Source of the DNA: Pseudoips prasinana
Taxonomy: Eukaryota > Arthropoda > Insecta > Lepidoptera > Nolidae
Assembly: GCA_951640165.1 (NCBI GenBank)
Contig: OX621258.1
Location: 3,309,501-3,373,500 of the forward strand
Reading direction: 5' to 3'
Length of the DNA stretch: 64,000 nt
The notes below the pieces were generated by a model. That model was not told where the DNA came from. It did no database searches and was given only the letters and a program-made list of their open reading frames with translations. How positions within the stretch are numbered: position 1 is the stretch's first letter; each line of letters opens with the position of its first letter. Position numbers and translations under genes: made by a program. Below, piece after piece: positions 8,461 through 26,804 of the stretch.

Positions 8461-8880
8461 AGTAGTATATTATTGGGCATTCTATACCACTATCGGCAAG
8501 TTGCTCGGCGAGTGCGCCTCGCTGCCGATAGTGGTATAGAATGCCCAATAATTGATAATCTACTCGCCTCTCCACTCGACCGAGACAGTACATTGTACTG
8601 AGAACTTGATTTGGAACGATAATTCGAGCAAATCGATACTCGACTCGCCACTCAACTCGACCGATACACTCGAACGAGACAGTTCATTTTGTCGCGTACT
8701 GGATGAGCTTTACTCGACCATTGACTAGTAACTTACTCCTTACCACTATATTCCATACGTCTGACCAGTATGCGGCGTTTCGGAGAACGATGAACTGTCA
8801 ACTATCAACTCGACTCTCCGTTTACTTACTGCACTCGACCGATCACTCGAGTTTGTATTCGCTGTTAACAGAATGTCGAG
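8461..8880 (+). repeat. Polinton left terminal inverted repeat
   Basis: The outer ~105 bp match the right end almost exactly. Further in, the left copy is expanded: CTCGACCGA-type units are multiplied, so the left repeat is about 420 bp against about 280 bp on the right. Shared inner landmarks are GCGTACTNGATGAGC and CTCTCCGTTTACTTACT. The pentanucleotide-like CTCGA is enriched. Confidence 0.9.
8469..8552. repeat. Terminal hairpin in left TIR
   Basis: A 30-bp perfect stem (8469-8498 with 8523-8552) closes a 24-nt GC-rich loop, which contains smaller CTCG/CGAG and GCGAG/CTCGC pairings. The overall shape recalls a branched parvovirus-type terminal palindrome. It lies only 8 bp from the element end. 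Confidence 0.95.
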
Positions 8881-8984
8881 CGAGAGTGATGGTGACCGAT
8901 GATTGTAACAAACCAAAGCTTGTGACTAAAGCGTTAACGGGTTGTTACTGTAAATAATAAACAACTGTAACTTAGGTACTTGGT

Positions 8985-10012
8985 TTAATTATCATAAAAT
9001 GTTGGTTTGTCTGGAAACAAAATATCAGCCGCACGCACGAGCTCTTGTAGTTTTCGCCACTGAGGAGAGTCCGCGTCGGTCTGGAACTTGATTCGGACGA
9101 GCGCTTTCTTCCACAGCTCGGCGGAGTCGGTGAGGCGAGCGTCGTCAGCCTTGTACACCTTGCAGTCGATGTAGTACTCTCCGTCGGTGCTCGTTGCTCG
9201 GCGCTCACAGCCGCTGGCTACGCGGTTCACAAAGAATGAAGTTAGGTGATCCGATGAATGTTCTTTGTGTGGGATGTCGCGGTTTTTACTGATGCCGAAT
9301 ATGTCCATGTCAGTGTTGGTTTTTTTACTGAAATAATAACGAAAACTGTTATTAGTTAATGTTTACAACGAGAGATGCAGGGGCAAACAAAAAATAACAA
9401 CGGTGTGTAAGCAGCGCACACAATCGCATAATATTTTATGAACGGCACCACGGATATTTCTGTAGAAAATATTACAAGTAACTAATCAGCGAATGGAATA
9501 CTTATGCAAATTGCACTATTATAATTCAATTAGTGGAAACGTACTACTTTACTATTTTAATTTAATCAGAACTAGGAGATAATAAATTCAAAATATTATT
9601 CACCTGCTACGAGTTACGGTTGTTGTTTGTGACTGCATCTTGCGTTTCCCATTGCTGTCTGCAGACGGATTGCGTCTGGCCTTCACTTTGTGTCCAGTGA
9701 TCGATGCTTGCGAGTAATCACACTCAGAGTCTGACCTGAAATAAAGATAGAGGAAATGTAGTCACACAATTATTATTAATTAATCCAATGGAGTAATGTC
9801 CATTGCGCTGGACATACTATAGGACACAAGTGTTCGGGCAAACACTGGTTCTCTAATATTTAAATGGGATAGCACTGAGACTGAGCTAACTATGTACAGA
9901 TCGGGTGATCTGTGAAGTAACGCGCTCACAAACAAATATATGTAGTTATAAATGACAGGCTAATCACAAGTGTGATCCATGAAAACGAACCGACTATTTT
10001 ATCAGACTTACA
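8985..10012 (-). CDS. Three-exon Polinton cargo gene, unknown function (158 aa)
   Basis: Predicted exons on the minus strand are a leader ending at 10012, then 9735-9604, then 9327-8985. Donor GTAAGT starts at 10011 with acceptor TTTCAG before 9735; donor GTGAAT starts at 9603 with acceptor TTTCAG before 9327. Reading phase is kept across both junctions. The first ATG would be split, with AT closing the leader and G opening exon 2; a TAG lies upstream in that frame. The product starts with an acidic SDSECD-like patch, then a basic KVKARR/GKRK region, then a folded-looking part with YYIDCKVYK, ELWKKAL and ADILFP. I recognise no family. It is visibly richer in G and C than the virion genes and is the only gene with two introns, so capture from a host is plausible. 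Confidence 0.6.
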
Positions 10013-11666
10013 TTATTTTCCGATCAGAAGTTCCACTCGGTTTGATGACTTGGCTGGTGGTGACAGCAGCGGATGGCTATCGACAATGCCGTCACTGATA
10101 TTGTAGGCGACACGGAGTGTTTGTAGACCGATTATACAAGTGCACTTCGTTGCACTTGCAGACTGCGAAAACTTTGTACCGAACAGAAAAACTTGTGGCT
10201 TATAAGTTAAAATCGAATTATAAGTTAGGAATGTTAAATCCACTACAATCAATCCGGTATTGCTTTGTTAAAGTAACTTTTTTTCTATAGTCGTATTATA
10301 CGCGTTGGAAAATTTTATACTGTATCGAATGTCGATGCAGCGAAATAAGCTAGGGCTGACCAAACGATAGCGTGAACGGAATCGCCACAAACCAGATAGA
10401 TTTTATTATTTTAAAGAAGTAAATAAATGTTTCCAAGGTAATTATTTCATCATCTACATTTAGGTTTCGTGTAGAAAAAATGAACTTACTGCCGTCTACC
10501 GCGTACTTCTCTAGATTTCCTAAAATAAATAGATAATATAATTCCTGTAACTACGGTAACGGGCATGACGAAACCATGAACGTTATATGATATCGTCATC
10601 GTCATGTCGTCTATCGACATACTATGATATATTTTAATCGATTAAGTGCATTGTGTGAAATTTGTATATTTGAATGCCTACCAAGTTGTTACCAACCCTA
10701 ACCAAAATAGCTGATTATTGTGATTGCGAAATAAATAATTATGTTTAGCACACGTGTAACAATTAGACAATAACAACTTTTATGATGAAATATTTTTCTG
10801 CTTTGTAGACAAAAAAGAAAACAAAAAAAATCCCTAAAATATTATTTATTACCTCAAAGTCTCTCGGAGCGAGCACCTTTCTAAACTGTTACAGTACAAT
10901 CAAGTTAATTATTATAAATAAATATTTAATTGATCTCACACCAGAAACAACAACAATTTCAGCTACTGGAGCAACTGTGTTCGTTATATCGGGGTGCTGA
11001 AATATACATACATATTTGGATCACGCAAATACATAATCTTATGTATGAACCATTTCATATTGTGCAGGTAATTATCAAATATAACACAACAATAATACGA
11101 TAACTATTTAGAACATTACAATAATTATGACTATTTTTCATTCTAGAATTTACAGCTTTTTACCTAATTCTTCATCGGTACCAATAAACCATTTTTTTTA
11201 GTTTCAGATACATTCTGCCTAAACATAATATTAATTACTGACTTGCCTGTGAAGAATTATTAAATTACTTGAAGTATATCTACATATTTGGACCACGCAG
11301 ATACACGTACTCTTATGTATACATAGTTTCATATTTTGCAGGTAATTATGAAATATATTTTTCTTCCCAGAATATACCATTAATCTCACCTAATCAGATT
11401 ATGTACCTAATGCATCCATTTTTTTTTTTTTTTTTTTTTTTATTATTTCAGATACATCCTGCCTAAACATAATTACCGACTTGCCTGTGAAAAATTACAC
11501 AAGGATCTTGAAATCAGCGTAAAATTGTCCTGACCAAGTTGTACTAATTATATAAAATATTTTGTCTGGTATACCTAAGACGGTGAATATTAGTTGTAAG
11601 TATTATCTAATCCAAATTTATTGAACTAATAATTTCAAGTGTTCTTTGATTTCAAACAATAATATA
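10013..11666. other. Polinton divergent intergenic region
   Basis: Lies between the minus-strand cargo gene and the plus-strand polymerase, so it should hold both promoters and the 5' leader of the cargo gene. It is AT-rich and contains the tandem duplication annotated separately and a T tract at about 11420-11440. I see no supported coding region; the open frame at 10013-10252 has no ATG and probably overlaps leader sequence. Confidence 0.6.
10998..11505 (+). repeat. Tandem duplication of a ~270-bp unit upstream of PolB
   Basis: Copy A starts near 10999 (tatacatacatatttggatcacgc) and copy B near 11275 (tatctacatatttggaccacgc). Both contain 'gcaggtaatta', then about 100 bases later 'tttcagatacat(t/c)ctgcctaaacataat', then 'gacttgcctgtga'. 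The 'AG/GTAATT' and 'TTTCAG/' words would serve as splice donor and acceptor, so duplicated leader exons or alternative leader introns for the polymerase gene are possible. Confidence 0.85.
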
Positions 11667-14600
11667 ATGCCTCACTGCTCTGATTGTAAAGTATTTGTAG
11701 ACAATCGTCGATGGTCTGGTCATTTACGTAGCAATGTACATAAAAACAATAGTTCTAACCCTATGTATGATAATGTTGTAATTATTAATTCTTCTTTTAA
11801 AGAACGAATCAAAAGTTACAAAATCATAGCGACAGGTGAACAAATACATAGTTTTCCTGAGGTGTTTCTCAAAAGTATTAGTACACAAGTCAAACATTTA
11901 ATAGACAATTCAATAGAGAAACACACCTCTGTCAAAATAAATTTTGAACTGTTTGCTTCGTTTCTTATGTATAAAAATGATCAACAAGAAATAAAATCAT
12001 TCCGTACAAACAACATTATTACACATTTTAATTACGATTTTGATTCTATTTATAAACTAACTATTGATTTACTACTAAAAAAAATTGAAGAATTTGAGGA
12101 AAGGGATAGTGGTTGGACTTTTTTATGCAATTCACATTTAGAATTAAATATTAATAAATATCAACCTCTCAGCGGATCTAAATTTTTAACTTTGCCGAAA
12201 TTCATAAAAAGTAAAAGAGCTTGTTTGAATATTCGGAACAATGATGAGTATTGCGTTTTGTGGTGTGTTGTGGCGGCATTGTACCCCACAAATAGACATC
12301 CCGATAGGATTTCGTCTTATCCCCGCTTTCAGGATGTTTTGAATGTTAATAATTTGACATTTCCAATCACATTTTCGGACATAGCTATCTTTGAGAAAAA
12401 TAATCCTTCTGTTAATATATATGTGTATGGTTTAAAAAACGAGAAGACAATTATTGGACCGCTTTATAAAACGTTGAATAATAAGTCTAATAAAAGTATC
12501 CATCTACTGTTTATAGAAAACAATAATAATTCTCATTACTGTCTTATCAAAGATTTATCTCGTTTAGTTAGAAATCAGATGACCAAACATCATGGTAAAC
12601 TATATTTCTGTGAAACTTGTTTATTGTTTTTTCCAACGCTTAGTCAAATTGAATCCCACTTGTGTGGGGGGATCGTCACAGTTTTACCAGAACAAGGTTC
12701 ATTTTTAAAATTTAAAAATTATGATAGGAAACAAAACATTCCATTCGTCATATACGCTGATTTCGAAACGTTACTTGAACCCATTTCCGACGATGATTTC
12801 AACACCGCTAATACGTCATACTCTAAACGCCACGTGCCGGCTGCATTCGCTTACAATGTCGTGTCATCAAATAAAAATGATAGCGTTGAAGGCTATAGAA
12901 GTTATCGCGGCAATGATTGTGTTTCAAAATTTATAAATTTTCTTACTGAGGATGTAAAACAAATACATCAGATTATATCCAAAAGCGAGCCTATGATATT
13001 CACTGATGACAATTCTCTAGAGTTCAAACGTGCCGTTAGGTGTCATATTTGCGACAATTTACTCTTGACCGATAAAGTAAGAGATCATTGTCATATTACA
13101 GGCCTGTATCGAGGTGCAGCACATCGACACTGTAATTTGCAACATAAAGTACCAAAATTTATACCAATATTTTTTCACAATTTATCCGGGTACGATTGTC
13201 ATTTATTTATAAAAAAGTTAGGCGAAATTCCAGGTCCAATTAAAATAATCCCTAAGACTAAAGAAAAATACGTCGCATTCACCAAATTTATTCCTATTGC
13301 TGATAATGAGTTTATTTGTATAAGATTTTTAGATTCATTCAACTTTTTAGGGACAAGTTTAGACAAGCTCGCTAAAACATTGCAGGTGGAAGATTTTGTT
13401 AATCTTCGATTTCATTTTTCTAAAGACAGACAGTTTAATTTATTGACAAGAAAAGGTATATATCCTTATGATTACATGACCAATTGGAAATGTTACGATC
13501 AAAAATCATTGCCGTCTAAGGGTAATTTTTATAATTATTTGACTAACGAAGACATTACAGATGAGGATTATAATCACGCACAGGCTGTTTGGGCTGAATT
13601 CAATATTAATAACCTCGGCGAGTATACGGATCTATACTTAAAAACGGATGTGCTTTTGTTAACAGACATATTTCAAAATTTTCGGAAAACCTGTAAACAA
13701 TATTACAGTCTTGACCCGGCGTTTTACATTACTGCACCTAGTTTATCTTTCGATGCAATGTTGCTAAAAACGGGCGTTCAGTTAGAACTCGTGTCGGACT
13801 TAGCTATCATCAGAATGATACAAAGCGGTATACGCGGCGGTTTGTGCATGTGTTCCCATCGGCATGCTAGAGCCAATCACAAATACATGCCTGAATATAA
13901 TCCATCACAACCTGAGAGTTTCATAGTATATTTAGATTGTAATAATCTTTACGGTTTTAGCATGTGTCAGTATTTACCATACTCTAGTTTCAGATTTTTA
14001 AGTGATAACGAATTAGCAAATTTTAATGTTACCACTATAGAGGATAACGCAAACTGGGGCTTCATATTAGAAGTCGATCTATTGTATCCCGAGCATTTAC
14101 ATAATGACCATAATGACTTACCATTTTGTCCCGAAAAATGTGTACCCCCGGGAGGTAAAACAAAGAAATTAATAGCAAATTTGTATAATAAGTACAACTA
14201 TGTGATTCACTACGTTCATTTAAAAAAATGTTTAGAACATGGTTTAATATTACGTAAAATTCATAGAGCAATTACTTTTAGACAGAGTCCATATTTAAAA
14301 CAGTACATAGAGTTAAATACTCAATTAAGACAGAAAGCAAAAAGTTCCTTCGAACAAGACTTTTTTAAGTTATTAAATAACAGTGTTTTTGGAAAAACAT
14401 TAGAAAATACTGAAAATAGAGTAACCGTACATTTAGTTAATCAATGGTGCGATCAGTCCAATCGAACTAAGAAATTTATATCCGCTGAGAAACTTATAGC
14501 CAACCCCTATTTCCACAGTGCATCTATTTTATCAGAAAATTTAGTTGCAATACAAATGAAACCTGATCAAATTATTTTAGATAAACCTATATACATAGGT

Positions 14601-15185
14601 TTCGCTGTATTAGAACTTTCAAAAGCACACATGTATTACTTTCATTACAATATTGTAAAGCCTTTTTATAAAGATCGAGTGCAGCTATGTTACACAGATA
14701 CCGATTCCTTTGTCTATAAAATATACACCAACGATTTTTACAATGATTTGAAATATAATTTTTTACAATATTTTGACAGCAGTAACTATGAAATCACAAA
14801 TGATTTACAGATACCGCTAAAAAATAAAAAGGTTCCCGGTCTCTTTAAAGATGAAATGGGAGGAAAATATATTACTGATTTTGTTGGTTTGAGATCGAAA
14901 CTTTACTCTATAAGAACCCCTAATAGTATCATTAAAAAAGCAAAAGGAGTAAAATCATGCGTGGTCAGGGATTTAAACTTATCAGACTATGAAACCATTT
15001 TATTTAATGGTGGAGTAATCCGGAGAAAAAATAATATGTTTAAATCAATAAAGCACGAAATATTTACTCGGACTGTCAACAAAGTTGCTTTATCTAGAAA
15101 TGATGACAAACGATCGATATCTGTGGATCAAATATCAACCCGAGCCTGGGGGCATGCATTTATTTTTAAGAATGAATTACTTTGA
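11667..15185 (+). CDS. Protein-primed family B DNA polymerase (pPolB)
   Basis: Replicates the Polinton genome, probably by protein priming at the hairpinned ends. From the ATG at 11667 it is about 1,172 aa, as expected for Polinton PolB. An N-terminal C2H2-like finger starts the protein. Exonuclease motifs follow: Exo I YADFET (~res 360), Exo II NLSGYD (~505), Exo III YLKTDVLLLTD (~655). Polymerase motifs are A LDCNNLYG (~755), B FFKLLNNSVFGK (~900) and C YTDTDS (~1008), then a RSKLYS basic motif near the end. Between Exo I and Exo II is a CHIC...DHCHITG...RHC cluster like the endonuclease VII zinc site. The upstream in-frame TTG at 11646 is not preferred, because ATG follows 21 bases later. 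Two AATAAA signals lie downstream (15236 and 15265). The frame is intact. Confidence 0.96.
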   Translation: MPHCSDCKVFVDNRRWSGHLRSNVHKNNSSNPMYDNVVIINSSFKERIKSYKIIATGEQIHSFPEVFLKSISTQVKHLIDNSIEKHTSVKINFELFASFLMYKNDQQEIKSFRTNNIITHFNYDFDSIYKLTIDLLLKKIEEFEERDSGWTFLCNSHLELNINKYQPLSGSKFLTLPKFIKSKRACLNIRNNDEYCVLWCVVAALYPTNRHPDRISSYPRFQDVLNVNNLTFPITFSDIAIFEKNNPSVNIYVYGLKNEKTIIGPLYKTLNNKSNKSIHLLFIENNNNSHYCLIKDLSRLVRNQMTKHHGKLYFCETCLLFFPTLSQIESHLCGGIVTVLPEQGSFLKFKNYDRKQNIPFVIYADFETLLEPISDDDFNTANTSYSKRHVPAAFAYNVVSSNKNDSVEGYRSYRGNDCVSKFINFLTEDVKQIHQIISKSEPMIFTDDNSLEFKRAVRCHICDNLLLTDKVRDHCHITGLYRGAAHRHCNLQHKVPKFIPIFFHNLSGYDCHLFIKKLGEIPGPIKIIPKTKEKYVAFTKFIPIADNEFICIRFLDSFNFLGTSLDKLAKTLQVEDFVNLRFHFSKDRQFNLLTRKGIYPYDYMTNWKCYDQKSLPSKGNFYNYLTNEDITDEDYNHAQAVWAEFNINNLGEYTDLYLKTDVLLLTDIFQNFRKTCKQYYSLDPAFYITAPSLSFDAMLLKTGVQLELVSDLAIIRMIQSGIRGGLCMCSHRHARANHKYMPEYNPSQPESFIVYLDCNNLYGFSMCQYLPYSSFRFLSDNELANFNVTTIEDNANWGFILEVDLLYPEHLHNDHNDLPFCPEKCVPPGGKTKKLIANLYNKYNYVIHYVHLKKCLEHGLILRKIHRAITFRQSPYLKQYIELNTQLRQKAKSSFEQDFFKLLNNSVFGKTLENTENRVTVHLVNQWCDQSNRTKKFISAEKLIANPYFHSASILSENLVAIQMKPDQIILDKPIYIGFAVLELSKAHMYYFHYNIVKPFYKDRVQLCYTDTDSFVYKIYTNDFYNDLKYNFLQYFDSSNYEITNDLQIPLKNKKVPGLFKDEMGGKYITDFVGLRSKLYSIRTPNSIIKKAKGVKSCVVRDLNLSDYETILFNGGVIRRKNNMFKSIKHEIFTRTVNKVALSRNDDKRSISVDQISTRAWGHAFIFKNELL

Positions 15186-15235
15186 TCATAATTTTAAGTT
15201 AAGTGTTACCTACTCATAGTTTAGTTTTAGGAAAT

Positions 15236-15270
15236 AATAAATGTTAATATTATACAAAAAATGAAATAAA
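15236..15270 (+). terminator. PolB polyadenylation signals
   Basis: AATAAA at 15236-15241 and again at 15265-15270, 50-80 bases past the PolB stop. Confidence 0.6.
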
Positions 15271-15650
15271 GTGTGAATTATTATAATTATTGACTTGTTT
15301 TATTTCTGAAATCCTGTTTATTTCAAAATATCATTACACTTTTAAAATCGGTAAACAAAGTTAACACTGATTGCAGTTATCTCACTATGCACCTAAAATA
15401 CCATGCATCATAAGGTTGATTTTCGAATAACTAACGTTTTACGATTAAGTAACATGCTTACAAGGCGTTGTTTGTCATTGTATAAGTGTTACCTACGTTG
15501 CAGTTCATTGGCCTTAGTCTTGAGACACAAACGCTTAGTTGACAATATTAGTATGACTTGTAATTATTTAGTTATTTTGTCATCATTTACGAAATATTAT
15601 TCGGCGCGAACACCTGTTTAATATTTTTTTAACTTCCATCAAAAGTTATC
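15271..15650. other. Polinton intergenic region
   Basis: AT-rich stretch between PolB and the small spliced gene. It presumably contains the promoter of the latter. A 72-codon open frame at 15403-15621 has no recognisable features and I do not call it. Confidence 0.4.
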
Positions 15651-16244
15651 ATGTCGGTGAGTAAAATATTTTTAATTCGTTTTTTTATGATTGTTTTATA
15701 ATTAGAGATTGTGTTCGCAGCTGTGTTGTGTTGCATTTTTCCAGAGCCTTTTGTCACTAATCTAAAGTAAATCTAGACTTTCTCGATTGAAAACCCAATT
15801 AAAACGCTATACTAGCGGAATAGTGGTATAAATTGTGTTTATATTTTGTTCCAGAATTCTGACACCGAGATTGTATTCAGCCAGTATGCTCAGAATCCTT
15901 ACGAGGGATTCTCCGAGATGTTTCGCAGTGAACCCGGGCAAAGCAAACAAGTCACGAAAGATAAAAAACCAAAACAACGGTGCAGGGAAAAATCGATAAA
16001 GCAAAATCCTACAAAATCCTTCGTTATGAGTCGACTACATCGAAAAGGGATTAAGTTAATAAAAATTTCAGTGGTAGATCTGTGTAACAACAATCCTCAA
16101 ACCATAGACAGTGATAGTGACAGTGAAAACGTTATTATAAACGCTCAATATATTGTTCAAGATCCCATCGACAGTGTTATGGACGAAACTGAGTCTTTAG
16201 TTAAGAAAATATCAAAATCTTTAATAGGTACTGACTTTTATTAA
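15651..16244 (+). CDS. Small two-exon charged protein (131 aa)
   Basis: A first exon of only six coding bases (ATG plus one codon, 15651-15656) ends at the strong donor GTGAGTAAA. The acceptor is TTTGTTCCAG, and exon 2 runs 15855-16244. Without this splice the frame has no ATG. The product is basic in the middle (KDKKPKQRCREK, SRLHRKGIKLIK) and acidic later (SDSDSE), and ends in a helix-like VMDETESLVKKISKSL. I do not recognise it; a regulatory or DNA-associated role would be a guess. AATAAA at 16349-16354 follows. The 197-bp intron is the only one seen in the central part of the element. Confidence 0.7.
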
Positions 16245-16348
16245 CCATTTTTGTAAAGTAGTTAATATTTGTATTTTCATTATGATGTTTTTATTTAATT
16301 TTGTATTAGGTTGTGTTATTTGTGGAGTAGCGTGGGGGTGTTTAACAA

Positions 16349-16383
16349 AATAAAAGCAAATTTACATTATTTTGATTTTTATT
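16349..16383. terminator. Convergent polyadenylation signals
   Basis: AATAAA on the plus strand (16349-16354) and on the minus strand (16378-16383) end the two converging transcription units within about 35 bases. Confidence 0.6.
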
Positions 16384-16436
16384 TAAAAACCTTAAAACCA
16401 ATAATCTAAATACATTACACATATGAGTACATACAT

Positions 16437-16913
16437 TTATACCCATTCTAAATATTTCCTTAAACAAAGCACATTTTTAAGAGCACATTGCTTTAGATGT
16501 TTATTACAATTAAAATTAGATCTTCCTTCACAGTATTTTTTATGCAAAACAGAGAAACTAAGACATTGTTCTGTACCAAGGTCTGATACTTTACAATTCA
16601 CACACAGTTCCTTTATCCAATTCACCTTCTCCAAACCATTTACAATAATTTCCTTATTTTCTAGATATGGAACGATTATACGCCGAAATTCTCTATAGTC
16701 AATATATCCTTCATTCCAATAAATACCTCTATTTCTTTCCAACCATTTAACTTGTCTCTTTTCGTCACTTGTTAAGTATTTAAACAAGTATGGCGGTTTT
16801 ATTAAAAATGTTTGCGTATAATCACGACTTGCAAAAGCTAATTCTTTTATTATAAAATTATTGTTCAGGTCTTTAAACCCTTGAACATCTAAAATAATAG
16901 TATTCGGATTCAT
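16437..16913 (-). CDS. 158-aa Polinton protein, possible RNase H/exonuclease-like fold
   Basis: Last gene of the penton/capsid chain. It starts with ILDVQGF and has FIIKELA shortly after, then KYLTSDEKRQVKWLERN, GIYW and EIIVNGLEKVNWIKEL, then a Cys-rich C-terminus. The first strand with an Asp, together with the late VNGLEKVNWI segment, resembles the layout of DEDD-type 3'-5' exonuclease-like proteins, but I cannot show a full catalytic set, so this is inference. Its ATG lies in an ATGA overlap with the major capsid stop, which suggests translation by reinitiation on the capsid mRNA. The alternative is a structural or Cys-rich accessory protein. Confidence 0.75.
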   Translation of the reverse strand: MNPNTIILDVQGFKDLNNNFIIKELAFASRDYTQTFLIKPPYLFKYLTSDEKRQVKWLERNRGIYWNEGYIDYREFRRIIVPYLENKEIIVNGLEKVNWIKELCVNCKVSDLGTEQCLSFSVLHKKYCEGRSNFNCNKHLKQCALKNVLCLRKYLEWV

Positions 16914-18124
16914 GATATTTTTCTCACAGTATTACTCAATGGCTTGTACTCAATTATGCAGTCGTTCAATATAAGACAGTATGCAGAAGTTTGATCTGGT
17001 ATATCGGAATCACTCTCAATTTCCACTCTTACATCCACAATAGGACCTGTCTTTACATTATCAGCTTGTCTAGAGCAATCTATGACAAATAGCGGCGCCA
17101 AATCTTTGAATTGTTTCTCACTTAATAAGGGTTCCGAGCGACGTCCGTAATAAGACTGTTGAAATCTGATGTATTGCTCGTATAATAAAGCGATTCTGTT
17201 ATTCGCGAAGCTGACATTTAGGTTTTCATACGGGAAGTAAGTTGAGTTTAAGTATACTCTAACGTCACGAACATGACAGTGATCGAACTGGGACATATCA
17301 GAACTTGAATTGTTTTTTCTATTTGTTTGTAGACCTATAATTATGTATCTTGGTTTCTCTATTTGTGAGGAAGTTTTGATAGACCAGGTATGTTTTGTAG
17401 TTTTAGGTAAAGCTGGATATTCGTACAGATCCCAATTTCTGAATATCATCTGGAGTGGTCGATCTTTTTCTAACAGTTTTAGCAAACTTATTTTTTCTTT
17501 GTCGGATACTTTAACATGCGGTACACGCCAGATGATTTTATTTATCTGAACGTCGTCTACAAATTCCCCGGTGTTAAGTTTCACAGCATTCAGATTAGTG
17601 TTACTTCGTAGCAATATCAGTTCGTGCCTACTATTTATCACGACTTTCTTGAAATCTTCTGCAAAACCGATAATGTTACAGAGGGGTATAGAAGCAGAAA
17701 AACTACCCCCATTAATATTTTTTATTCCATCGATATTCCAGCCCCATGCATTGGCTATCTTTGATTCACCTTCACTCATTGATATTAACGATTTCATGGT
17801 GGTAGTTATGCCAGCGTTTTTTATTCTATCAATTTCCACTCCATTCAGCTCATATCTTATATCTTGGAATAAGTAGAGTAGAGCATTATTCGTAAAATTA
17901 ACACTAGTGGCTTTCTCTTTCATATCCTTTTTACTTACGACAACAGTTCCTTCCAAATACAAGGTACTAGCTGAGGGAAGTATATACAAGTCCTGTTGGT
18001 TAATAGGTATGCGGATTTCATCGTTTCTATTGAAACTAGTTACGTAGGGCTTGTAAGAATGAAATTCGATTCCTTCAACAGTGTTGTCATAAGTCGGAGC
18101 AGATAAAACGTCTAAGATATTCAT
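16910..18124 (-). CDS. Major capsid protein, double jelly-roll type
   Basis: This 404-aa protein is predicted to form the trimeric hexon-like capsomer. The call rests on gene order (between the penton homologue and the 158-aa gene), on length, and on resemblance to the Polinton capsid family: an N-terminal NILDVLSAPTYD-like lead, then strand-rich segments with LYLEGTVVVSKKD and IRYELNGVEIDR, and a second half with VRVYLNSTYFPYENLNV. No frameshift or stop is present. Its start overlaps the 49-aa gene's stop (18121-18124) and its stop overlaps the next start (16910-16913), both as ATGA. Confidence 0.85.
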   Translation of the reverse strand: MNILDVLSAPTYDNTVEGIEFHSYKPYVTSFNRNDEIRIPINQQDLYILPSASTLYLEGTVVVSKKDMKEKATSVNFTNNALLYLFQDIRYELNGVEIDRIKNAGITTTMKSLISMSEGESKIANAWGWNIDGIKNINGGSFSASIPLCNIIGFAEDFKKVVINSRHELILLRSNTNLNAVKLNTGEFVDDVQINKIIWRVPHVKVSDKEKISLLKLLEKDRPLQMIFRNWDLYEYPALPKTTKHTWSIKTSSQIEKPRYIIIGLQTNRKNNSSSDMSQFDHCHVRDVRVYLNSTYFPYENLNVSFANNRIALLYEQYIRFQQSYYGRRSEPLLSEKQFKDLAPLFVIDCSRQADNVKTGPIVDVRVEIESDSDIPDQTSAYCLILNDCIIEYKPLSNTVRKIS

Positions 18125-18270
18125 TTTAGCAAACCGATCGCTTTGAGAAATGCCTTGTTTTCTTTAGTTAATTTAATTTTCTTCTTAGAGCGAGCTCTTA
18201 TTTGGTTGAAAGCTTGAGCGGGACTGATATTTTTGATTTGTTGATGCATATATTTATTGTAGTCAATCAT
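18121..18270 (-). CDS. 49-aa basic protein between penton and major capsid
   Basis: Short frame that exactly fills the gap between two capsid genes. Its ATG (18268-18270) overlaps the penton stop and its TGA (18121-18123) overlaps the capsid start, both as ATGA. The middle is strongly basic (RARSKKKIK), followed by a helical LTKENKAFLKAIGLL end. Neither end has slack, so the frame is very unlikely to be chance. The function is unknown. A DNA-condensing or capsid-cementing peptide would fit the charge and the neighbours, but that is speculation. Confidence 0.75.
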   Translation of the reverse strand: MIDYNKYMHQQIKNISPAQAFNQIRARSKKKIKLTKENKAFLKAIGLLK

Positions 18271-18941
18271 TTTTTTCTTCTGAGATGCAAATACAGCTGC
18301 ACTTCTTCACCGCGCAAATTGATTAAGCGGTTATTTATATCTAACAGCCTGATATGTATACAGCTAATGTTGTTTTGGTTAATTGGAAAGTATATCGCGT
18401 TTTTCGGGATTTCTATAATTCTATATCCGGGAGGCACGTTGAGAGCAAATTCGTGGATAATGTGACTGGGTTCTCCGTTTGTGTACGAGCCGCTTACAAT
18501 ATCACATTCGATCCTGATCACTGTTGTAGGTAAAATGTTGACTGGAAAGTGCGATACATGCCATTTATTTGCTTTTAAGATCTGCTTATTAAACCCTAAC
18601 AAATTCCTAAACGTACCTTCTTTATTAAAATTTATGTCTTTTGTACAATATACAGCAGCTTTTAAAGTATTGTTATTGCACTGTAGTTTGATTGATGCAT
18701 CTTTCATTTCAGATTTTAAATAATCATTAATATCTTGCAATTCATAGGTGCCGTCAGGTATTTCAATAACTTCGTTAGAACCATAATAGAACTTATTATT
18801 CGTTTTGTCAATGTTTGGAATAGAATTAAATGTTGCGAAATGCAATAAGGCACACTCATACTGTTCATATAGTTGCAACGTGTTAGGATAGTAAGTAGAT
18901 AAAGTTGACGAGTTTCCAGTTATCGATAATGTGAGTGACAT
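18267..18941 (-). CDS. Penton (minor capsid) protein, single jelly-roll type
   Basis: This 224-aa protein is the expected vertex protein of Polinton virions. It opens with MSLTLSITGNSSTLST and has a YYGSNEVIEIPDGTYELQDI segment that resembles the strand-rich N-terminal part of this family, and ends in a basic RRKK. It is the first gene of a transcription unit: the upstream protease gene ends at 18987 with an AATAAA over its stop, and only 45 bases separate them. Its stop is fused to the next ATG by ATGA (18267-18270). Confidence 0.82.
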   Translation of the reverse strand: MSLTLSITGNSSTLSTYYPNTLQLYEQYECALLHFATFNSIPNIDKTNNKFYYGSNEVIEIPDGTYELQDINDYLKSEMKDASIKLQCNNNTLKAAVYCTKDINFNKEGTFRNLLGFNKQILKANKWHVSHFPVNILPTTVIRIECDIVSGSYTNGEPSHIIHEFALNVPPGYRIIEIPKNAIYFPINQNNISCIHIRLLDINNRLINLRGEEVQLYLHLRRKK

Positions 18942-18983
18942 CTTGCAAATGATTCAAATAAAAGAAAAGCATAAGTTTTATAC

Positions 18984-18991
18984 GTTTTATT
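18984..18991 (-). terminator. Polyadenylation signal overlapping the protease stop
   Basis: On the minus strand AAATAAA spans the protease TAA (18987-18989), so the signal is partly inside the coding frame. It would end the upstream mRNA just before the penton unit. Confidence 0.55.
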
Positions 18992-19361
18992 TCCAAAAAT
19001 TCCTTAGATATTCTAAACATAAGTGTCCACAATTTACAGTGTTGAATTTCTGATATCTTGTATAATTATAAAAAACATTACAATTCTTAAAATATCGCAT
19101 TAATTCCATTGGAGGTTTTAAATCTCCAAAGCTATCAAAATATTCACAATAATTGCATACTTTTACATAAGCTACCCAATGCGTGCCTTCGTTCTTAGAG
19201 TCGGCCAAGTTAACAACACCACATTCAACCCGTTTTGGCGTCCTTGGTAACTGATCCTTCATGTATACTCCTCGAAAGTGAGGGATGTTGCGTGCATACC
19301 TTTGGATGTCTATATTAGTGAGAGGACGATTAGGTAGCTTATTTTTCAGTTTTTTGAAGAC
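18987..19361 (-). CDS. Adenain-like cysteine protease, apparently lacking its own ATG
   Basis: Maturation protease of the Ulp1/adenain class. Counted from the internal ATG at 19262, the catalytic set is THW His28, YFDSFG Asp43, Gln71 and NCGHLC Cys78. The conserved family sequence starts well before that Met: the open frame reaches to 19361, just after an in-frame TAA, and contains the usual LTNIDIQRYA and HFRGVYMKD segments, yet no ATG precedes them. The upstream gene's slippery heptamer would shift ribosomes into exactly this frame (see 19349-19355). Alternatives are a non-AUG start, splicing, or a truncated protease from 19262. About 91 aa from the ATG or about 121 aa past the shift site. 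Confidence 0.85.
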   Translation of the reverse strand, partial: VFKKLKNKLPNRPLTNIDIQRYARNIPHFRGVYMKDQLPRTPKRVECGVVNLADSKNEGTHWVAYVKVCNYCEYFDSFGDLKPPMELMRYFKNCNVFYNYTRYQKFNTVNCGHLCLEYLRNFWK

Positions 19362-20074
19362 TTAATGAATAAACCATTACCATTTTTATGTGACTTAATG
19401 TACAAGCCCTGACCTAACTTTAAAGACTCCATAGCCTTATTATGTCGTTGTGTTTCTCGCAAATTTTGCTGACCTGCTTTGTAATCGTTAACAGTTTTTG
19501 CAATACCAGCCGCACCACCAGCTAAAGTTCCTAAAGCTGATAAACCCGCAAAAATTGGGATTAAAGGTAGAATACCTCCAGTCTTTGGTAAGGGTATCAC
19601 TCGCGGCACTCGAATTTTCTGAATGCATGGGATTATTTTTTTTGCTGCTGAGTAAGCAGCGTTAATTAAAGCTTTACTGTCCTTTGGATTCAGTTTCTTT
19701 ATTTTTGCTTTTATTTTTGACACGAAACTTTTAAACGTTTTAATGCCAGAACCAGATTTCAGTTTGGCTTTCATAACTTTGCTCACTAACCATGAACTAA
19801 GTTTTTCACCTTTCCCAGCATCGCTCGATTTAAGTCTTTGTTTAGCCATATTTAGTAGTTGCAAATCAGCTTTGTGGCGATTGGGTAAGTCTGTATGGTC
19901 TGCATATGCAATGTCGTGATGCATACAAGCTTCGTCTAGCTTATTTACACCTCGGTCACCTCGTAATAAACGTTTCTGCAATTTAGTTCCGGGACCGCAA
20001 TAATTGTAGCCGGGTAAATGAAGTTCGAACGGTAGATTATTAATTAAGGTATTAACAAGTTCACCTCCTTGCAT
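19346..20074 (-). CDS. PLA2-domain minor capsid protein
   Basis: This 242-aa protein is probably packaged and releases the particle from membranes. Near the N-terminus it has a group XII/parvovirus-like phospholipase A2 core: the calcium loop YCGPG (res 25-29), catalytic HD in ACMHHDIAY (His53, Asp54), and a further Asp at 70. A Lys-rich region follows, then a Gly/Ala-rich hydrophobic segment at about res 165-195 that could insert in membranes, then two GLYIK/GLFIK repeats at the C-terminus. PLA2 proteins of this layout are known from adintoviruses and the PLA2 motif from parvovirus VP1. It ends on the candidate frameshift site, so a PLA2-protease fusion is a possible second product. Confidence 0.88.
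   Translation of the reverse strand: MQGGELVNTLINNLPFELHLPGYNYCGPGTKLQKRLLRGDRGVNKLDEACMHHDIAYADHTDLPNRHKADLQLLNMAKQRLKSSDAGKGEKLSSWLVSKVMKAKLKSGSGIKTFKSFVSKIKAKIKKLNPKDSKALINAAYSAAKKIIPCIQKIRVPRVIPLPKTGGILPLIPIFAGLSALGTLAGGAAGIAKTVNDYKAGQQNLRETQRHNKAMESLKLGQGLYIKSHKNGNGLFIKSSKN
19349..19355 (-). promoter_or_regulatory. Candidate -1 ribosomal frameshift site
   Basis: The minus strand reads A_AAA_AAC in the frame of the PLA2 gene, directly followed by its TGA stop (19346-19348). This is a canonical X_XXY_YYZ heptamer of the kind used by several retroviral gag-pro junctions. A -1 slip continues into the protease frame without a stop. I could not find a strong downstream stem or pseudoknot by eye; only a 5-bp pairing (TCCTC with GAGGA) is apparent. 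Confidence 0.65.
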
Positions 20075-20127
20075 TGTCTAATGTGTAATGAGAGAAATGA
20101 TGCAAAAGTAATCGTTATATAATTATT

Positions 20128-21063
20128 TTAATCCACTATTGCAGTTTTCTCGATCCAACTATTTTCTTCGTTGTTTAGACCCAACCATTTCACAAACATT
20201 TTTGATCCTTTTCTTTTTAAAACCCTTTCTATCAAATAAATACCAGGATAGTAAGATTTCTGAAGTTCTTGCTCGTAAAATGTTCCCATTATGGCTTGCT
20301 TTCGCTGATCTTGTATATGATATGTTACTGGTATGGTATGATTAATTTTTTTTATAGTAAATATTTCAGTTGACCAATTAGGTGTATAACCTTTTTCAAA
20401 ATGGTGTTTGTATTTACTGATACGAACAAAGTCACCTACTTTGAACTTAGGTTTTCTACGGACGGTTACATGATTTAAGGCTTTTTTAATATTTTCTTTT
20501 ATAACAGACTCGCAAGATTTATTTACTTCAATTGGTTTAAATTTAATGGTACGATGTTTTGTGTTGTTATATATCTTTAACGTAACCTCTAACGGTATAC
20601 CTAACCACATATAGTTTCCGTTCAGACTAAAATATTTATATATTTTATTTTTAAGAGTTTTAATCAGTCGCTCTACGATCGAAGCTTTTTTAGTAGAAAA
20701 CGTTGAGTAATGGTTAACATTGTAAGTCTTCATAAGCGTTTGAAATGAGTTGTTATAAAATTCTGTTCCCATATCAGTTTGTAAATTAACCGGTTTGCGA
20801 TTGCTGTTAATCAGTATTCGTTTAAATGCATGAGTAACATCAAGTTTATTTTTTGATTTTAATGGCTCTGCCCAAGCGTACTTTGAGAAGCAGTCAATCA
20901 CCACTAAAATGTAATTATGACCTTTATTATATTTTCTTAGATTTTGCATGTCCATCAGATCAGCTTGCCACAAGTCATCGATCCCCTTTAGAATGACAGG
21001 ACGTCTAACGAAATTTCTTCGTGCTGCTTTATGTATTTCATTAACAATTTGCTGTTTTGCCAT
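20128..21063 (-). CDS. Retrovirus-type integrase with C-terminal chromodomain
   Basis: Inserts the element and makes the 6-bp duplication. In 311 aa the rve core has Asp35 (WQADLMD), Asp97 (LQTDMGTEF) and Glu131 (ASIVERLIKTLKNK), with 33 residues between the last two. It is followed by a KFKVGDFVRISKYK segment like the integrase SH3-type domain. A chromodomain-like end (about res 272-311) has YLIERVLKRK, FVKWLG and NSWI. The start ATG shares one base with the upstream stop (TAATG at 21061-21065), which suggests coupled translation. A zinc-binding HHCC domain is not obvious at the N-terminus. Confidence 0.95.
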   Translation of the reverse strand: MAKQQIVNEIHKAARRNFVRRPVILKGIDDLWQADLMDMQNLRKYNKGHNYILVVIDCFSKYAWAEPLKSKNKLDVTHAFKRILINSNRKPVNLQTDMGTEFYNNSFQTLMKTYNVNHYSTFSTKKASIVERLIKTLKNKIYKYFSLNGNYMWLGIPLEVTLKIYNNTKHRTIKFKPIEVNKSCESVIKENIKKALNHVTVRRKPKFKVGDFVRISKYKHHFEKGYTPNWSTEIFTIKKINHTIPVTYHIQDQRKQAIMGTFYEQELQKSYYPGIYLIERVLKRKGSKMFVKWLGLNNEENSWIEKTAIVD

Positions 21064-21497
21064 TACGGAGTTTTTTGTAGTAATTTATCTACCTCTGCTT
21101 GGGTATAAAACTTATCTTCCAAATGAGTTGAAATCTCAGGTATCTTTGCTTTTAAAGTAGCCTGAACTGTGTCCTTTGTGTCTTTTATGATTTGAGAGCG
21201 CAATGAACCAATCATGTTATTAAATTCTTTTAACATATTAGCATTCAATCGATCTACGTAATCCTTGTTCACGGTCAGGTTATTTAATTCTTTTAACATG
21301 TTAGCATTCAATCGATCTACATAATCCTTGTTCACAGCATCGCCTGCTTCTACTGGAGATCGGACTCCTCTTAATCTTGATGTTTTTAAATCAAAATCTC
21401 CGTTTTCTAATTTTAACAATGCGTTCTCATTAAACTCAAATAACTCTGATAAACGCATTCTTTTGTGAATGTAGTGTCCGAATTTGTCTACGTTCAT
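21063..21497 (-). CDS. Coiled-coil, fibre-like protein with a duplicated 21-residue unit
   Basis: 144 aa. A segment with GDFDLKTSRLRGVRSP.EAGDAVNKDYVD resembles the 'DAVNK-YVD' collar seen in many trimeric phage tail-fibre proteins. It is followed by two adjacent near-identical copies of a 21-residue unit (VNKDYVDRLNANMLKE...), that is three heptads each, and then more coiled coil. By analogy this is a trimeric spike or fibre attached to the capsid; homology is not proven. The duplication is visible in DNA as a 63-bp tandem repeat (about 21220-21345). It ends in a TAATG overlap with integrase. Confidence 0.72.
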   Translation of the reverse strand: MNVDKFGHYIHKRMRLSELFEFNENALLKLENGDFDLKTSRLRGVRSPVEAGDAVNKDYVDRLNANMLKELNNLTVNKDYVDRLNANMLKEFNNMIGSLRSQIIKDTKDTVQATLKAKIPEISTHLEDKFYTQAEVDKLLQKTP

Positions 21498-21553
21498 ATT
21501 TAAGGTGTATTGTATCGAGAAGCTGATAATAAAATAAACACATTTTAAAATAT

Positions 21554-22456
21554 TTATTTATTTATAACTTTACTTTCACGCAATTCTTCAATGATAGATA
21601 TAATTTCATTATCTAATCCTGTGTTACCAGCATCTCGAGATGCAATTAGTAATTTTAACCTATCTACCAATTCATTTGGATCGTCCCAATAAACAAAATC
21701 AACATTTTTCTTCCACATTTTTGTAAAGGGTAGTCCTTTTCCTTTCGTTTGGTGGTCCTGAATTGTACTTCGTAGTTGGAATAGAGGCTTAATAATTTGC
21801 AAATATTTTTGTCCTTTATTACTTTTGATTGGTTTACTGGGCTCATAGTCCCGTCGATGTGCGTTTGTGTCAAGTAGCATCGACTTATAATGTTTCATAT
21901 CACTCTCTGTAACCAAGCTTAAATCGACATTCTTTTTCAACAGCAACTGTTTTAAACCAGGCGTATTTCGGTATTTGCGTCCAGCTACGATGATATACTC
22001 ATCACTGATCGTTATACGAGCAGAACCTAACATCAATTTTCCGCCCTCTTTTCTGACACCAAACGGAATATCGGTCAGAGCTTCTGAGGACAGTGACCAG
22101 GATGATGAATCAATACCTTGGTTGTTTTCAACTAATGATTTGTACGAAGAGTCACTTTCGATATCAGATTCATATTCGTCTTCATTGTCGTTATTATCAT
22201 TGGTTCCTTTACTAATTGTGGGTTCTTTTTGCAAAGTTTTATCGATAAACGGAACTTCGGTTTCTTCATTTTCTATATTATGCGGAACACAAGCCTGCTT
22301 ACTGACATTAGCAATTTGGTTGAGTGGTTCTGTTACCGGCTTGAAAACTGATTCCAGTACTTGCTGATTGTTAAGCTCAGCATCTCTCATCTTTCGCACC
22401 TTCTTCTTAACAGCATCTGCAGCCTCAACAATTTGTCTTTTCAGTGATTTTTCCAT
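21554..22456 (-). CDS. 300-aa Polinton protein with conserved C-terminal domain
   Basis: The N-terminus is Lys-rich and helical. The middle is acidic and low in complexity (many D, E, N and S), and the last ~170 residues look folded: DIPFGVRKEGGKLMLG, YRNTPGLKQLLL, GKGLPFTKMW and FVYWDDPNELVDRLKLL. I associate this C-terminal part with proteins found in other insect Polintons but cannot give a function. It sits directly downstream of the ATPase, 83 bases apart. AATAAATAAATA overlaps its TAA, so an mRNA may end here. Confidence 0.78.
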   Translation of the reverse strand: MEKSLKRQIVEAADAVKKKVRKMRDAELNNQQVLESVFKPVTEPLNQIANVSKQACVPHNIENEETEVPFIDKTLQKEPTISKGTNDNNDNEDEYESDIESDSSYKSLVENNQGIDSSSWSLSSEALTDIPFGVRKEGGKLMLGSARITISDEYIIVAGRKYRNTPGLKQLLLKKNVDLSLVTESDMKHYKSMLLDTNAHRRDYEPSKPIKSNKGQKYLQIIKPLFQLRSTIQDHQTKGKGLPFTKMWKKNVDFVYWDDPNELVDRLKLLIASRDAGNTGLDNEIISIIEELRESKVINK

Positions 22457-22539
22457 AGTAACAAAAAGTTCGTGATTGATTAAGCGATGTCTGAAGAATA
22501 ATAATATCGCGAGGGTAACACTCTTAAATATAAATATTT

Positions 22540-23226
22540 TTAATCAAAGACAACAAAAGTGTCAAATTTATTTCTATAACATCCTTTATTTTTGGAGCAA
22601 TCCTTATTAATCACTACATAATTGAAAGGTTCACTCCATATTTTCGAACACATTTCACGAAATTCAATCCATGTCATATCAGTGTTGACATGTTCTTCAT
22701 AAATATGCCGTAAATTAATTTCATCTTGTTTAAAAAGTATGATTAAGTTCGCATTATCTCTTACTAACTGCTTGGGGATTTTACTATATGTTTGGTTCAG
22801 ATAAAAACAATCTATGCATTTGTGTCTTCCCATTGCAAAATAATCACGCATGTTATTTTGATTTTCACAAGCAACATCATCAAAAATAATCACGGAGTTG
22901 GGTTTTGCGTCCTGAACGCTTAGTACTTCCTCATTTCCCTGATATTTCTGGAGGGAAATACCGGGAACCCGTTGCAAAACTCTTTCTAAGAAAATGTACT
23001 TAGGTTGGTGCAGAGTTTTTGAATAAACATAAACATTTTCAAATCTTAATCCATTTTCGTGTATAAGAAGGCCAATTAATAAATTGGTTTTTCCACAATT
23101 AGATGGACCACAAATGATACATCGTACTGAGTTAGGTAATAATTCCCCATGACGAAAACTAGTCTTACAAATATCATCGCAGACTGTATCAACATGCAGC
23201 GATTGCGGTTGTTTTACAAATTTCAT
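22540..23226 (-). CDS. Genome-packaging ATPase, FtsK/HerA type
   Basis: 228 aa, expected to pump the DNA into the capsid. Walker A is CGPSNCGKT (res 39-47) and Walker B is SVIIFDD (res 111-117). A later YLNQTYSKIPKQLVRDNANLII stretch supplies the sensor/arginine-type region usual in Polinton ATPases. It is the first minus-strand gene from the right end, about 120 bases inside the terminal repeat, so its promoter must lie there or in the repeat. The frame is intact. Confidence 0.93.
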   Translation of the reverse strand: MKFVKQPQSLHVDTVCDDICKTSFRHGELLPNSVRCIICGPSNCGKTNLLIGLLIHENGLRFENVYVYSKTLHQPKYIFLERVLQRVPGISLQKYQGNEEVLSVQDAKPNSVIIFDDVACENQNNMRDYFAMGRHKCIDCFYLNQTYSKIPKQLVRDNANLIILFKQDEINLRHIYEEHVNTDMTWIEFREMCSKIWSEPFNYVVINKDCSKNKGCYRNKFDTFVVFD

Positions 23227-23344
23227 GATTACTGTTGGAAATGAACCGATTAAAAATGAGTGAATGTATATAGTACGTTAACATTTATAAACTTACCACA
23301 ACCTCTTTTGCGTTACTGGTCATTGATCGAGTGGATTGTTCATT

Positions 23345-23624
23345 ACTAAGCATTCTGTACCACCCTTCAGAGCGATAGCAAACTCGCATGATCATTGGTT
23401 GTATACAGTTATACACTAGAGAGTAAGTAAACGGAGAGTTGATGGATGATCATCGTTGCTCATCAAGTACGCAGCAAAATGTACTGTCTCGGTCGAGTTT
23501 ATCGGTCGAGTGGAAAGGCGAGTCGATTATCAATTATTGGGCATTCTATACCACTATCGGCAGCGAGGCGCACTCGCCGAGCAACTTGCCGATAGTGGTA
23601 TAGAATGCCCAATAATATACTACT
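23345..23624 (-). repeat. Polinton right terminal inverted repeat
   Basis: Reverse complement of the left end for about 105 bases with very few differences. It then matches the left copy's inner landmarks (23415-23470) without the CTCGACCGA expansions. Confidence 0.9.
23533..23616. repeat. Terminal hairpin in right TIR
   Basis: 30-bp perfect stem (23533-23562 with 23587-23616) and a 24-nt loop that is the exact reverse complement of the left loop. The two ends are therefore in the same orientation relative to the termini. Confidence 0.95.
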
Positions 23625-23771: not shown

Positions 23772-24089
23772 CGCAGTGTAACCACAATTATTCAATAATC
23801 GTTTAATAATAACCTATCCTTGTCAATTCTATCAGTAATGGGGGCATAAAATAACCTGAGCTCTTAAAATTGTCTGACAATATTTTGATAGTAATAATGA
23901 ACACGATATTTAACTAACTTTAACCCAATCTTTTAAATGGAAGATCCTGATATAATTTGAAAGATAATAGCTTAATTCGGGCGGATAATTTCTGTGTTGT
24001 TATTTTATTCTTTGACTATAAATAGCTGTTGCTGAACTTTAGACTTTTGCGGGTAGGTCCACATTTTGCTTTACAAATAACATTCTGTA

Positions 24090-24571
24090 TACAGGGTGTT
24101 TGGAAGGGAGCTGTACATACGCCTAGGGTAGAAACTAGGGATAGTCTGCTACCTACCCCCGCCCATTATATTGACCTTGGCCTCAAGGTTTTTTTTTAAT
24201 TTATTTTTATTTTTTATTTGACTTTTTTGTGATTTTTTGACTAAAACTACCTGTAGCTCTAAATCTATCCATGGGACCGGTCGGCTAATGGTCTTGTTTT
24301 AATCGTTAGAGTCTTAGGGTCCTGCAAAAAATTATTTTACACCAGAAAATTGTGGAGAAGAAAAGTTATGGGGCCTGAAGTACCATAGTAAGGTAAAGAA
24401 ATAATTTTAAGGGCAACTTTCTATGGGGTTTAAAAAAAACTAACAGGGTTGGAGTTCTTCTGATTTTTTTAAAACATCCTCAGTCCATGCCCTTTCTAAC
24501 GATATGCTAAAAGTGTAATTATCACTTTTAGTTTTAAAGTTATTAATTAATTTCCGCAACTAGGGCACTTT
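24090..24571 (+). repeat. Left long inverted repeat of the mariner-type element
   Basis: Matches the reverse complement of 26294-26774 down to TTCCGCAACTNGGGCACTT. Only scattered single differences (for example 'gctctaaat' against 'gctcaaaat') were noticed. Confidence 0.9.
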
Positions 24572-24899
24572 TACCACCACGAGTCGACATTTGTAAGACA
24601 AATGTAATTTCCAGAATTTAAACCAGTTTGGCCTACAGTTGGCAAATTTGTTGTCTCACTCTTACACGAGAGCAACATGTAAGAGACAAAACATGTCATG
24701 TCATGTCTCTTTCGCTCTTGGGTCGACGGGGCCGGGCAGGTAACTCGTTGGGGTCTTTGTTAGTCAGTCGAGATTTACCCATCTTAGCTAACTTACGTAC
24801 TTGCCGTTACGACGCTCCACTGTTTTCGTTAATTTTGTTGAGTTTGTTATTACTTCGTTTTTGTTAAGTTTTGTTATTTGTTACCTTGTTGTTGGCAAA

Positions 24900-26164: not shown

Positions 26165-26293
26165 TTAATTAAAATTAGTAATTAATTAAAATTTGTAATT
26201 TAATGACATTAGTCATTACCAAATTTTTTGTTTCATTTGCCATCCTTTTACGATCGAACACATTTAATTTTCATTCGTTGAAATTTTTGCTTG

Positions 26294-26774: not shown

Positions 26775-26804
26775 TATACATAACAAACGTATTACAAAAT
26801 CTTT

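What the first reader, a model, noticed from the sequence alone, without database searches (positions are those of the whole stretch)
19340..19365. Canonical -1 frameshift heptamer links PLA2 capsid gene to an ATG-less protease
On the minus strand the PLA2 frame reads A_AAA_AAC and then stops at TGA. The -1 frame runs straight into the protease, whose conserved first ~30 residues have no ATG and are preceded by an in-frame TAA. Canonical heptamer, correct frame, adjacent stop and missing start all agree. That predicts a PLA2-protease fusion carried into the particle, much as retroviruses deliver their protease through gag-pro. I do not recall this described for Polintons.
Basis: partly seen in the sequence, partly recalled or inferred. 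Interest (0 to 1): 0.9.

Follow-up and report, generated by a model that had tools for sequence, protein, structure and literature searches.

The report
Conserved ribosomal frameshift makes Polinton protease
In a virus-like element of what looks like an insect genome, the protease gene has no start signal of its own and appears to be made only when ribosomes slip back one letter at the end of a neighbouring capsid-protein gene, a trick best known from retroviruses and kept here in many related elements.

Summary
On the minus strand the PLA2 frame ends TCA AAA AAC TGA (heptamer 19349-19355). The protease lies in the -1 frame, opens only after a TAA at 19362-19364, and has no ATG, GTG or TTG before 19262. 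In the window's own assembly I examined 101 distinct copies in eight families (proteases 52-100% identical to the window's): A_AAA_AAC followed by T is kept at 100, and no -1-frame ATG precedes the conserved protease box. In family C the -1-frame stop abuts the heptamer and the 0-frame stop follows it, so the frame can change only there; that stretch has no ATG, CTG or AG acceptor. All 120 listed database PLA2 homologues end in Lys-Asn (at most two residues follow), always after a residue that can have an A-ending codon; 60 of 63 beetle-type proteins agree. Some relatives fuse both proteins in one frame. Best reading: programmed -1 frameshifting adds the adenain-like protease to a membrane-active minor capsid protein. 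I found no conserved downstream RNA structure. Slippage was not measured, and incorporation into particles is inferred. A 2024 preprint suggested similar Hexon-Adenain fusions; the PLA2 version was not found in ten literature searches.

The parts
19349..19355 (-). Slippery heptamer A_AAA_AAC (0-frame codons AAA AAC)
   Evidence: kept at 100 of 101 distinct copies in the same genome
19346..19348 (-). 0-frame TGA stop of the PLA2 gene, directly 3' of the heptamer
   Evidence: TGA in families A and B, TAA in C-G
19346..20074 (-). PLA2-domain minor capsid-like protein, 242 aa: phospholipase domain, hydrophobic GGILPLIPIFAGLSALG segment, C-terminal G-GLYIK / GLFIK motifs
   Evidence: Pfam PF08398 Phospholip_A2_4, E 3.4e-14; 2414 homologues at E up to 0.001
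18987..19361 (-). -1-frame open frame of the adenain-like cysteine protease (first ATG only at 19262)
   Evidence: profile match to adenovirus proteinase 1avp, E 2e-4; AF2 model of a database relative matches adenovirus proteinases
19362..19364 (-). TAA stop in the -1 frame just upstream; bounds the stretch in which a shift can occur
19263..19337 (-). Protease residues 9-33 (LPNRPLTNIDIQRYARNIPHFRGVY), conserved but before any ATG
   Evidence: alignment; codon-position bias; equivalent helix and most of a strand in the model
8461..23624 (.). Host Polinton/Maverick element between terminal inverted repeats
   Evidence: Inverted repeats 8461-8583 / 23502-23624, 98%; rve integrase, A32-like ATPase, double jelly-roll capsid protein

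Best explanation
The PLA2/minor capsid gene and the protease gene of this Polinton form one translation unit. Most ribosomes stop at the TGA and make the PLA2 protein. A minority slip back one base on A_AAA_AAC (P-site Lys and A-site Asn tRNAs re-pair on AAA AAA) and continue into the -1 frame, making a PLA2-protease fusion; this is the only route I can see to a complete adenain-like protease. Shown by sequence: the frames, the heptamer, the missing start, their conservation in eight families of this genome and, from protein tails, in many other insect-type elements. Inferred: that slippage occurs and at what rate. Also inferred: that the fusion sets a low protease dose and carries the protease into the assembling particle with the membrane-active minor capsid protein, to be freed later by proteolysis, as Gag-Pro does in retroviruses.
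For: (anatomy). AAAAAAC+T in 105 of 107 fetched loci, i.e. 100 of 101 distinct places, in eight families; no -1-frame ATG before the LP box in 107 of 107 (one of them, L050, is out of register through an indel); in family C the -1 stop abuts the heptamer and the 0-frame stop follows, so the heptamer is the only place to change frame. Lys-Asn tail in 120 of 120 listed PLA2 homologues, preceded in 120 of 120 by a residue that can have an A-ending codon; 60 of 63 and 60 of 60 in the beetle-type set; 36 of 37 clusters at 70% identity. Lys-Asn is kept even where the stop lies further on (what follows is a residue whose codon can begin with T, or a stop, in 59 of 60); 5 of 5 PLA2/protease pairs inferred to share a contig, with a protease model reaching across the junction, decode to A AAA AA[C/T] T; third-position bias of the -1 frame before the first ATG; single-frame fusions of the same two parts in relatives; the part before the internal Met forms a confident helix and most of a strand of the adenain fold.
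Against: No downstream structure: MFE z-scores between -1.0 and +1.9 in six families, no alifold structure and no stem of 5 bp or more kept in 5 of 6 families; no H-type pseudoknot in the window's first 90 nt with my simple scanner. Lys-Asn is absent in 3 of 63 beetle-type proteins (named ones among one search's misses: P0331 Diorhabda, P0341 Exocentrus), and at 60% clustering only 9 of 11 clusters have it. Some relatives have a protease Met near the junction (for example P0001, P0018, P0109), so the shift is not the universal route. Of four family C copies only L048 has both frames long and open. No measurement of frameshifting or of a fusion protein was available.
Confidence: 0.88

Rival explanations
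1. Transcriptional slippage: RNA polymerase adds a base in the A run, so that a fraction of mRNAs carry PLA2 and protease in one frame.
For: The run is A6 in families A and B and 7 or more in the others. P0101 is a database contig whose A-rich junction is in one frame while its near-identical sister P0263 is not.
Against: A6 is short for polymerase slippage (recalled). The conserved unit is the tandem-codon pattern with C at position 7 (AAC although AAT is the commoner Asn codon), not run length.
Confidence: 0.06
2. Near-cognate or internal initiation (for example CUG at the junction, an IRES, or leaky scanning) makes a free full-length protease.
For: A CTG follows the heptamer in families A and B; some relatives have a Met near that place.
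Against: The CTG is CTA in families C-G. In the beetle-type set Cys follows KN, which would give CTG, in only 4 of 60; two more have an immediate stop of unknown codon. No near-cognate codon lies between heptamer and LP box in the representatives of families D-F. The PLA2 message has 11 ATGs, its own start included. Initiation does not explain the Lys-Asn tail.
Confidence: 0.03
3. An intron supplies the protease N-terminus by splicing.
For: AG dinucleotides precede the LP box inside the -1 open frame in families A, B, D, E, F and G.
Against: Family C has no AG between the -1 stop and the LP box, nor has H (a decayed copy). Splicing does not explain the heptamer.
Confidence: 0.02
4. The protease starts at the internal ATG (19262) and the heptamer is incidental.
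Against: Residues 9-33 are conserved and show -1-frame codon bias. In P0101 the equivalent part holds the helix 87-97 and the strand 102-107 up to the internal Met, pLDDT about 97.
Confidence: 0.01

Closest known systems
Retroviral gag-pro -1 ribosomal frameshifting (A_AAA_AAC type, for example MMTV gag-pro; recalled)
   Same: Same heptamer class, structural protein upstream, protease in the -1 frame without a start, nearby 0-frame stop.
   Different: A double-stranded DNA Polinton; upstream protein is a minor capsid/PLA2-type protein, not Gag; protease is an adenain-type cysteine enzyme; no conserved 3' pseudoknot found.
Hexon-Adenain ('Hexain') and Penton slippery sites suggested for adintoviruses by KnotInFrame (2024 preprint, PMC11071296; passages read)
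   Same: Suggests a -1 shift joining a virion protein to Adenain in related elements.
   Different: Partner is Hexon, not the PLA2 protein; one sentence in the passages I read, with no conservation analysis there; the term PLA2 does not occur in the main text.
Spodoptera frugiperda Maverick 1 and 2 CAP and PRO (PMC5803895; passages read)
   Same: Same kind of genes; the closest named PLA2 homologue is a S. frugiperda CAP, 86% (P0132).
   Different: CAP and PRO are described as separate ORFs; neither of the two uses of 'frameshift' in the text concerns them.
Adenovirus protease and its cofactor pVIc, from the C terminus of membrane-lytic protein VI (recalled; cofactor complexes 1avp, 1nln appear)
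   Same: Protease functionally tied to the C terminus of a membrane-active minor capsid protein.
   Different: Here the tie would be covalent, by frameshift; the model of a database fusion shows no confident cofactor-like strand.

Membership tests
Programmed -1 ribosomal frameshift site | X_XXY_YYZ heptamer in the 0 frame at the ORF overlap | tested here: met
Programmed -1 ribosomal frameshift site | Downstream ORF open in the -1 frame through the site, without its own start | tested here: met
Programmed -1 ribosomal frameshift site | Site conserved in diverged relatives | tested here: met
   outside this genome only proteins were seen, and they can prove no more than A_AAA_AA[C/T]
Programmed -1 ribosomal frameshift site | 3' stimulatory stem-loop or pseudoknot (usual, not universal; recalled) | tested here: not met
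   complex or long-range structures not tested
Programmed -1 ribosomal frameshift site | Measured frameshifting | not testable with these tools
   Needs a reporter assay or peptides
Polinton/Maverick (Eupolintoviridae-like) element | Terminal inverted repeats, rve integrase, A32-like ATPase, double jelly-roll capsid protein | tested here: met
Polinton/Maverick (Eupolintoviridae-like) element | Protein-primed DNA polymerase B | tested here: inconclusive
   ORF 11646-15185 of 1179 aa has the expected size and place, but Pfam gave only a weak Endonuclease_7 match at E up to 0.01
Adenain (peptidase C5) protease | Catalytic His, Asp/Glu, Gln, Cys (window H61, D76, Q104, C111) | tested here: met
   H61, Q104 and C111 invariant, D76 nearly invariant in 21 sequences; assignment to roles is recalled
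Adenain (peptidase C5) protease | Pfam PF00770 above the curated cut-off | tested here: not met
   15.2 bits against 21.3 for the window protein; 14 of 21 sequences, window included, match at E up to 1. So called adenain-like
Adenain (peptidase C5) protease | Adenain fold | tested here: met
   Foldseek top hits 1nln, 4wx4, 4pie, 4piq, 1avp, E 3e-7 to 3e-6, with the model of relative P0101, not of the window protein itself
Retroviral Gag-Pro | Retroviral Gag and aspartic protease | tested here: not met
   PLA2-type protein and cysteine protease; works alike, not a member

The most novel reading that the evidence does not exclude
A whole lineage of insect Polintons, at least in moths and beetles, makes its maturation protease only as a frameshift extension of its membrane-active minor capsid protein, from a minimal site (heptamer plus nearby stop) without a 3' structure. 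In a DNA virus-like element this converges on retroviral Gag-Pro and links to the adenovirus pattern in which the protease is tied to the tail of its membrane-lytic protein. The tie has been kept while the PLA2 domain was lost (family D) and has become a constitutive fusion in some relatives.
Probability: 0.55. Interest if true: 0.88.

Novelty: new variant of a known kind. Interest (0 to 1): 0.78.

Why it matters
Polintons are widely discussed as virus-like, yet how their protease would reach a particle is open. A conserved gag-pro-like frameshift predicts a set ratio of minor capsid protein to protease, a fusion peptide that can be searched for by mass spectrometry, and thus a direct test of whether these elements build and mature virions. 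It also means that start codons assigned to PRO by gene callers in such elements are often false.

Tried and rejected
Downstream structure: nested folds of 106 nt (z 0.01) and 70 nt in six families (mononucleotide shuffles), alifold and a conserved-stem scan, and a simple H-type pseudoknot scan (mononucleotide shuffles; the window gave no candidate) found nothing conserved. A 7-bp stem predicted in the window alone is not shared.

Cofactor idea: in the AF2 model of database fusion P0101 the two GLYLKK stretches are low confidence (block means 40-52 over residues 41-70), so a tethered pVIc-like strand is not supported.

Scans that found no relatives: viral contigs, genome contigs. One search was an alignment with two loci in the wrong orientation; dropped and not used.

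The neighbouring junction was considered as a second frameshift: ORF 18267-18941 ends A_AAA_AAA TGA in the window, but in families B and C that heptamer is absent, and by my reading of the printed sequence an ATG overlaps the junction instead (of eight stretches given, D, E, F and one C stretch gave no usable ORF). It serves as an internal contrast, not as a second site.

Family H (L108) has a decayed PLA2 frame and carries little weight; families G and H are single copies among those examined.

Literature: ten searches of open-licence PMC only. Besides the two papers cited, I read only the 'frameshift' passages of PMC8097293, PMC10120064, PMC12721341, PMC8363768 and PMC12567637 (in the last also the adintovirus passages); none describes this. 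The other papers were seen as listings. PMC8502044 (adintoviruses) was not held and was not seen. Not in print means not in these searches.

Full report
Anatomy. The window holds a Polinton between terminal inverted repeats 8461-8583 and 23502-23624, with rve integrase, A32-like ATPase, a PLA2-domain protein and a double jelly-roll capsid protein. The eight other minus-strand ORFs that I checked begin with ATG. The protease does not: its frame (18987-19361) opens after TAA at 19362-19364 and first meets a start codon at 19262, residue 34. The PLA2 frame ends TCA AAA AAC TGA, so the heptamer A_AAA_AAC (19349-19355) sits in the right phase to carry ribosomes into the protease frame.

Is it chance? 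In this element Asn is AAC in 82 of 270 codons, Lys is AAA in 234 of 294, and 34% of codons end in A. AAAAAAC occurs 7 times on the minus strand of the 15,164-bp element, so presence alone is weak evidence; position, phase and conservation carry the case.

Conservation in DNA. The window's own assembly (1.13 Gb, 56 contigs, unnamed) has many copies: 150 matches scored of 298 candidates, and 150 of 301 in a second search with another protease. I examined 107 loci, 101 distinct places, the window's own copy among them. They fall into eight families by junction and identity, in distinct places: A 60, B 12, C 4, D 9, E 3, F 11, G 1, H 1 (my tally). AAAAAAC followed by T is present in 105 of 107 loci (100 of 101 places; the one miss, fetched twice, is a decayed A copy). 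No locus shows a -1-frame ATG before the LP box (107 of 107; L050 is out of register through an indel); GTG and TTG were also looked for in the first 70 loci and not found. Protease DNA between families is 53-87% identical over 330 nt (six representatives).

The slip window. In family C the -1-frame stop TAA directly precedes AAA AAA CTA and the 0-frame TAA directly follows AAC, so a ribosome can pass from one frame to the other only on the heptamer. The same stretch has no ATG, CTG or AG; it does have one ATT. Family C is old: of its four copies only L048 has both frames long and open. CTG follows the heptamer only in A and B; in C-G it is CTA. These facts remove a conserved CUG start and, in family C, a splice acceptor that would leave the LP box intact.

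The -1 frame is coding before its first ATG. Across six representatives, residues 9-33 differ at codon positions 1/2/3 in 94/58/211 of 375 pairwise comparisons, much like residues 34-60 (108/74/200 of 405). In the AF2 model of database fusion P0101 the same part forms a helix (87-97) and a strand (102-107, ending at the internal Met) at pLDDT about 97, and the fold matches adenovirus proteinase.

Conservation in proteins elsewhere. Of 2414 PLA2 homologues the best 120 were listed. All 120 have Lys-Asn at the C terminus (115) or one or two residues before it (5), and the residue before Lys-Asn is always one that can have an A-ending codon (120 of 120, against 95 of 120 one position earlier; background 76%). 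A beetle-type set chosen by motif from the 120 listed of 372 (63 proteins; named ones include Exocentrus and Diabrotica) keeps Lys-Asn in 60 of 63, mostly two residues before the stop; a residue whose codon can begin with T, or a stop, follows in 59 of 60. A slightly different motif choice gave 62 of 65, one of them preceded by Asp; the three misses there are P0331 (Diorhabda), P0341 (Exocentrus) and P0353. By identity clusters over both sets, Lys-Asn is present in 163 of 165 (90%), 105 of 107 (80%), 36 of 37 (70%), 9 of 11 (60%) and 4 of 4 (50%). Of 34 PLA2/protease pairs with equal longest-contig length, 5 have protease models that reach across the junction, and all 5 decode to A AAA AA[C/T] T; 22 have a protease called only from the internal Met; 7 begin in between.

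Exceptions and transitions. Some relatives have a Met just before the LP box (P0001, P0007, P0109) and may initiate there. Others are single-frame fusions of the minor capsid C terminus and the protease: P0101, P0241, P0242 (Sitophilus oryzae gene model), P0243, P0245, P0257 and the partial P0287; some of these could be assembly or gene-model products. Family D lacks the PLA2 domain yet keeps the C-terminal part, the heptamer and the protease; its 152-aa ORF is the same length in 6 of 9 copies. So the constant partner is the hydrophobic/GLYLK part, not the lipase.

What is missing. I found no conserved downstream structure. The site may be a weak, minimal one, perhaps helped by the nearby stop; this is inference. 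Particle delivery is inference from the Gag-Pro analogy. That the host is a moth rests only on the closest named homologue, Spodoptera frugiperda CAP.

Prior art. The closest text found is one sentence in PMC11071296 on potential Hexon-Adenain fusions, next to its remark on Penton slippery sites. The Spodoptera Maverick paper treats CAP and PRO as separate. The PLA2-protease shift and its conservation were not found in ten searches (listed under Tried and rejected).

Noticed in passing
18121-18306 (-) and 18267-18941 (-): The next ORF also ends in a slippery-looking A_AAA_AAA TGA, with a small -1-frame ORF starting at an ATG that overlaps the stop; the heptamer is absent in families B and C.
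   Followed up: partly
L042, L043, L045, L052, L053, L056 (family D): A Polinton family in the same genome whose PLA2 gene is a 152-aa ORF without the phospholipase domain, apparently a lineage rather than random decay.
   Followed up: partly
24088-26776 (+): Another element: 483-nt perfectly matching inverted repeats around two ORFs with helix-turn-helix and (below cut-off) DDE_3 transposase matches.
   Followed up: no
G000 (whole assembly): Very high Polinton copy number; 28 listed copies, the window's included, have a protease identical over all 124 residues, suggesting recent amplification.
   Followed up: no
P0101 and P0263: Near-identical beetle-type sequences, one with PLA2 tail and protease in one frame and one with the usual KNFQ end: a natural in-frame variant or an assembly or RNA product.
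   Followed up: no
49695-50846 (-), 43705-44121 (-): Reverse transcriptase (RVT_1) matches of retroelements.
   Followed up: no
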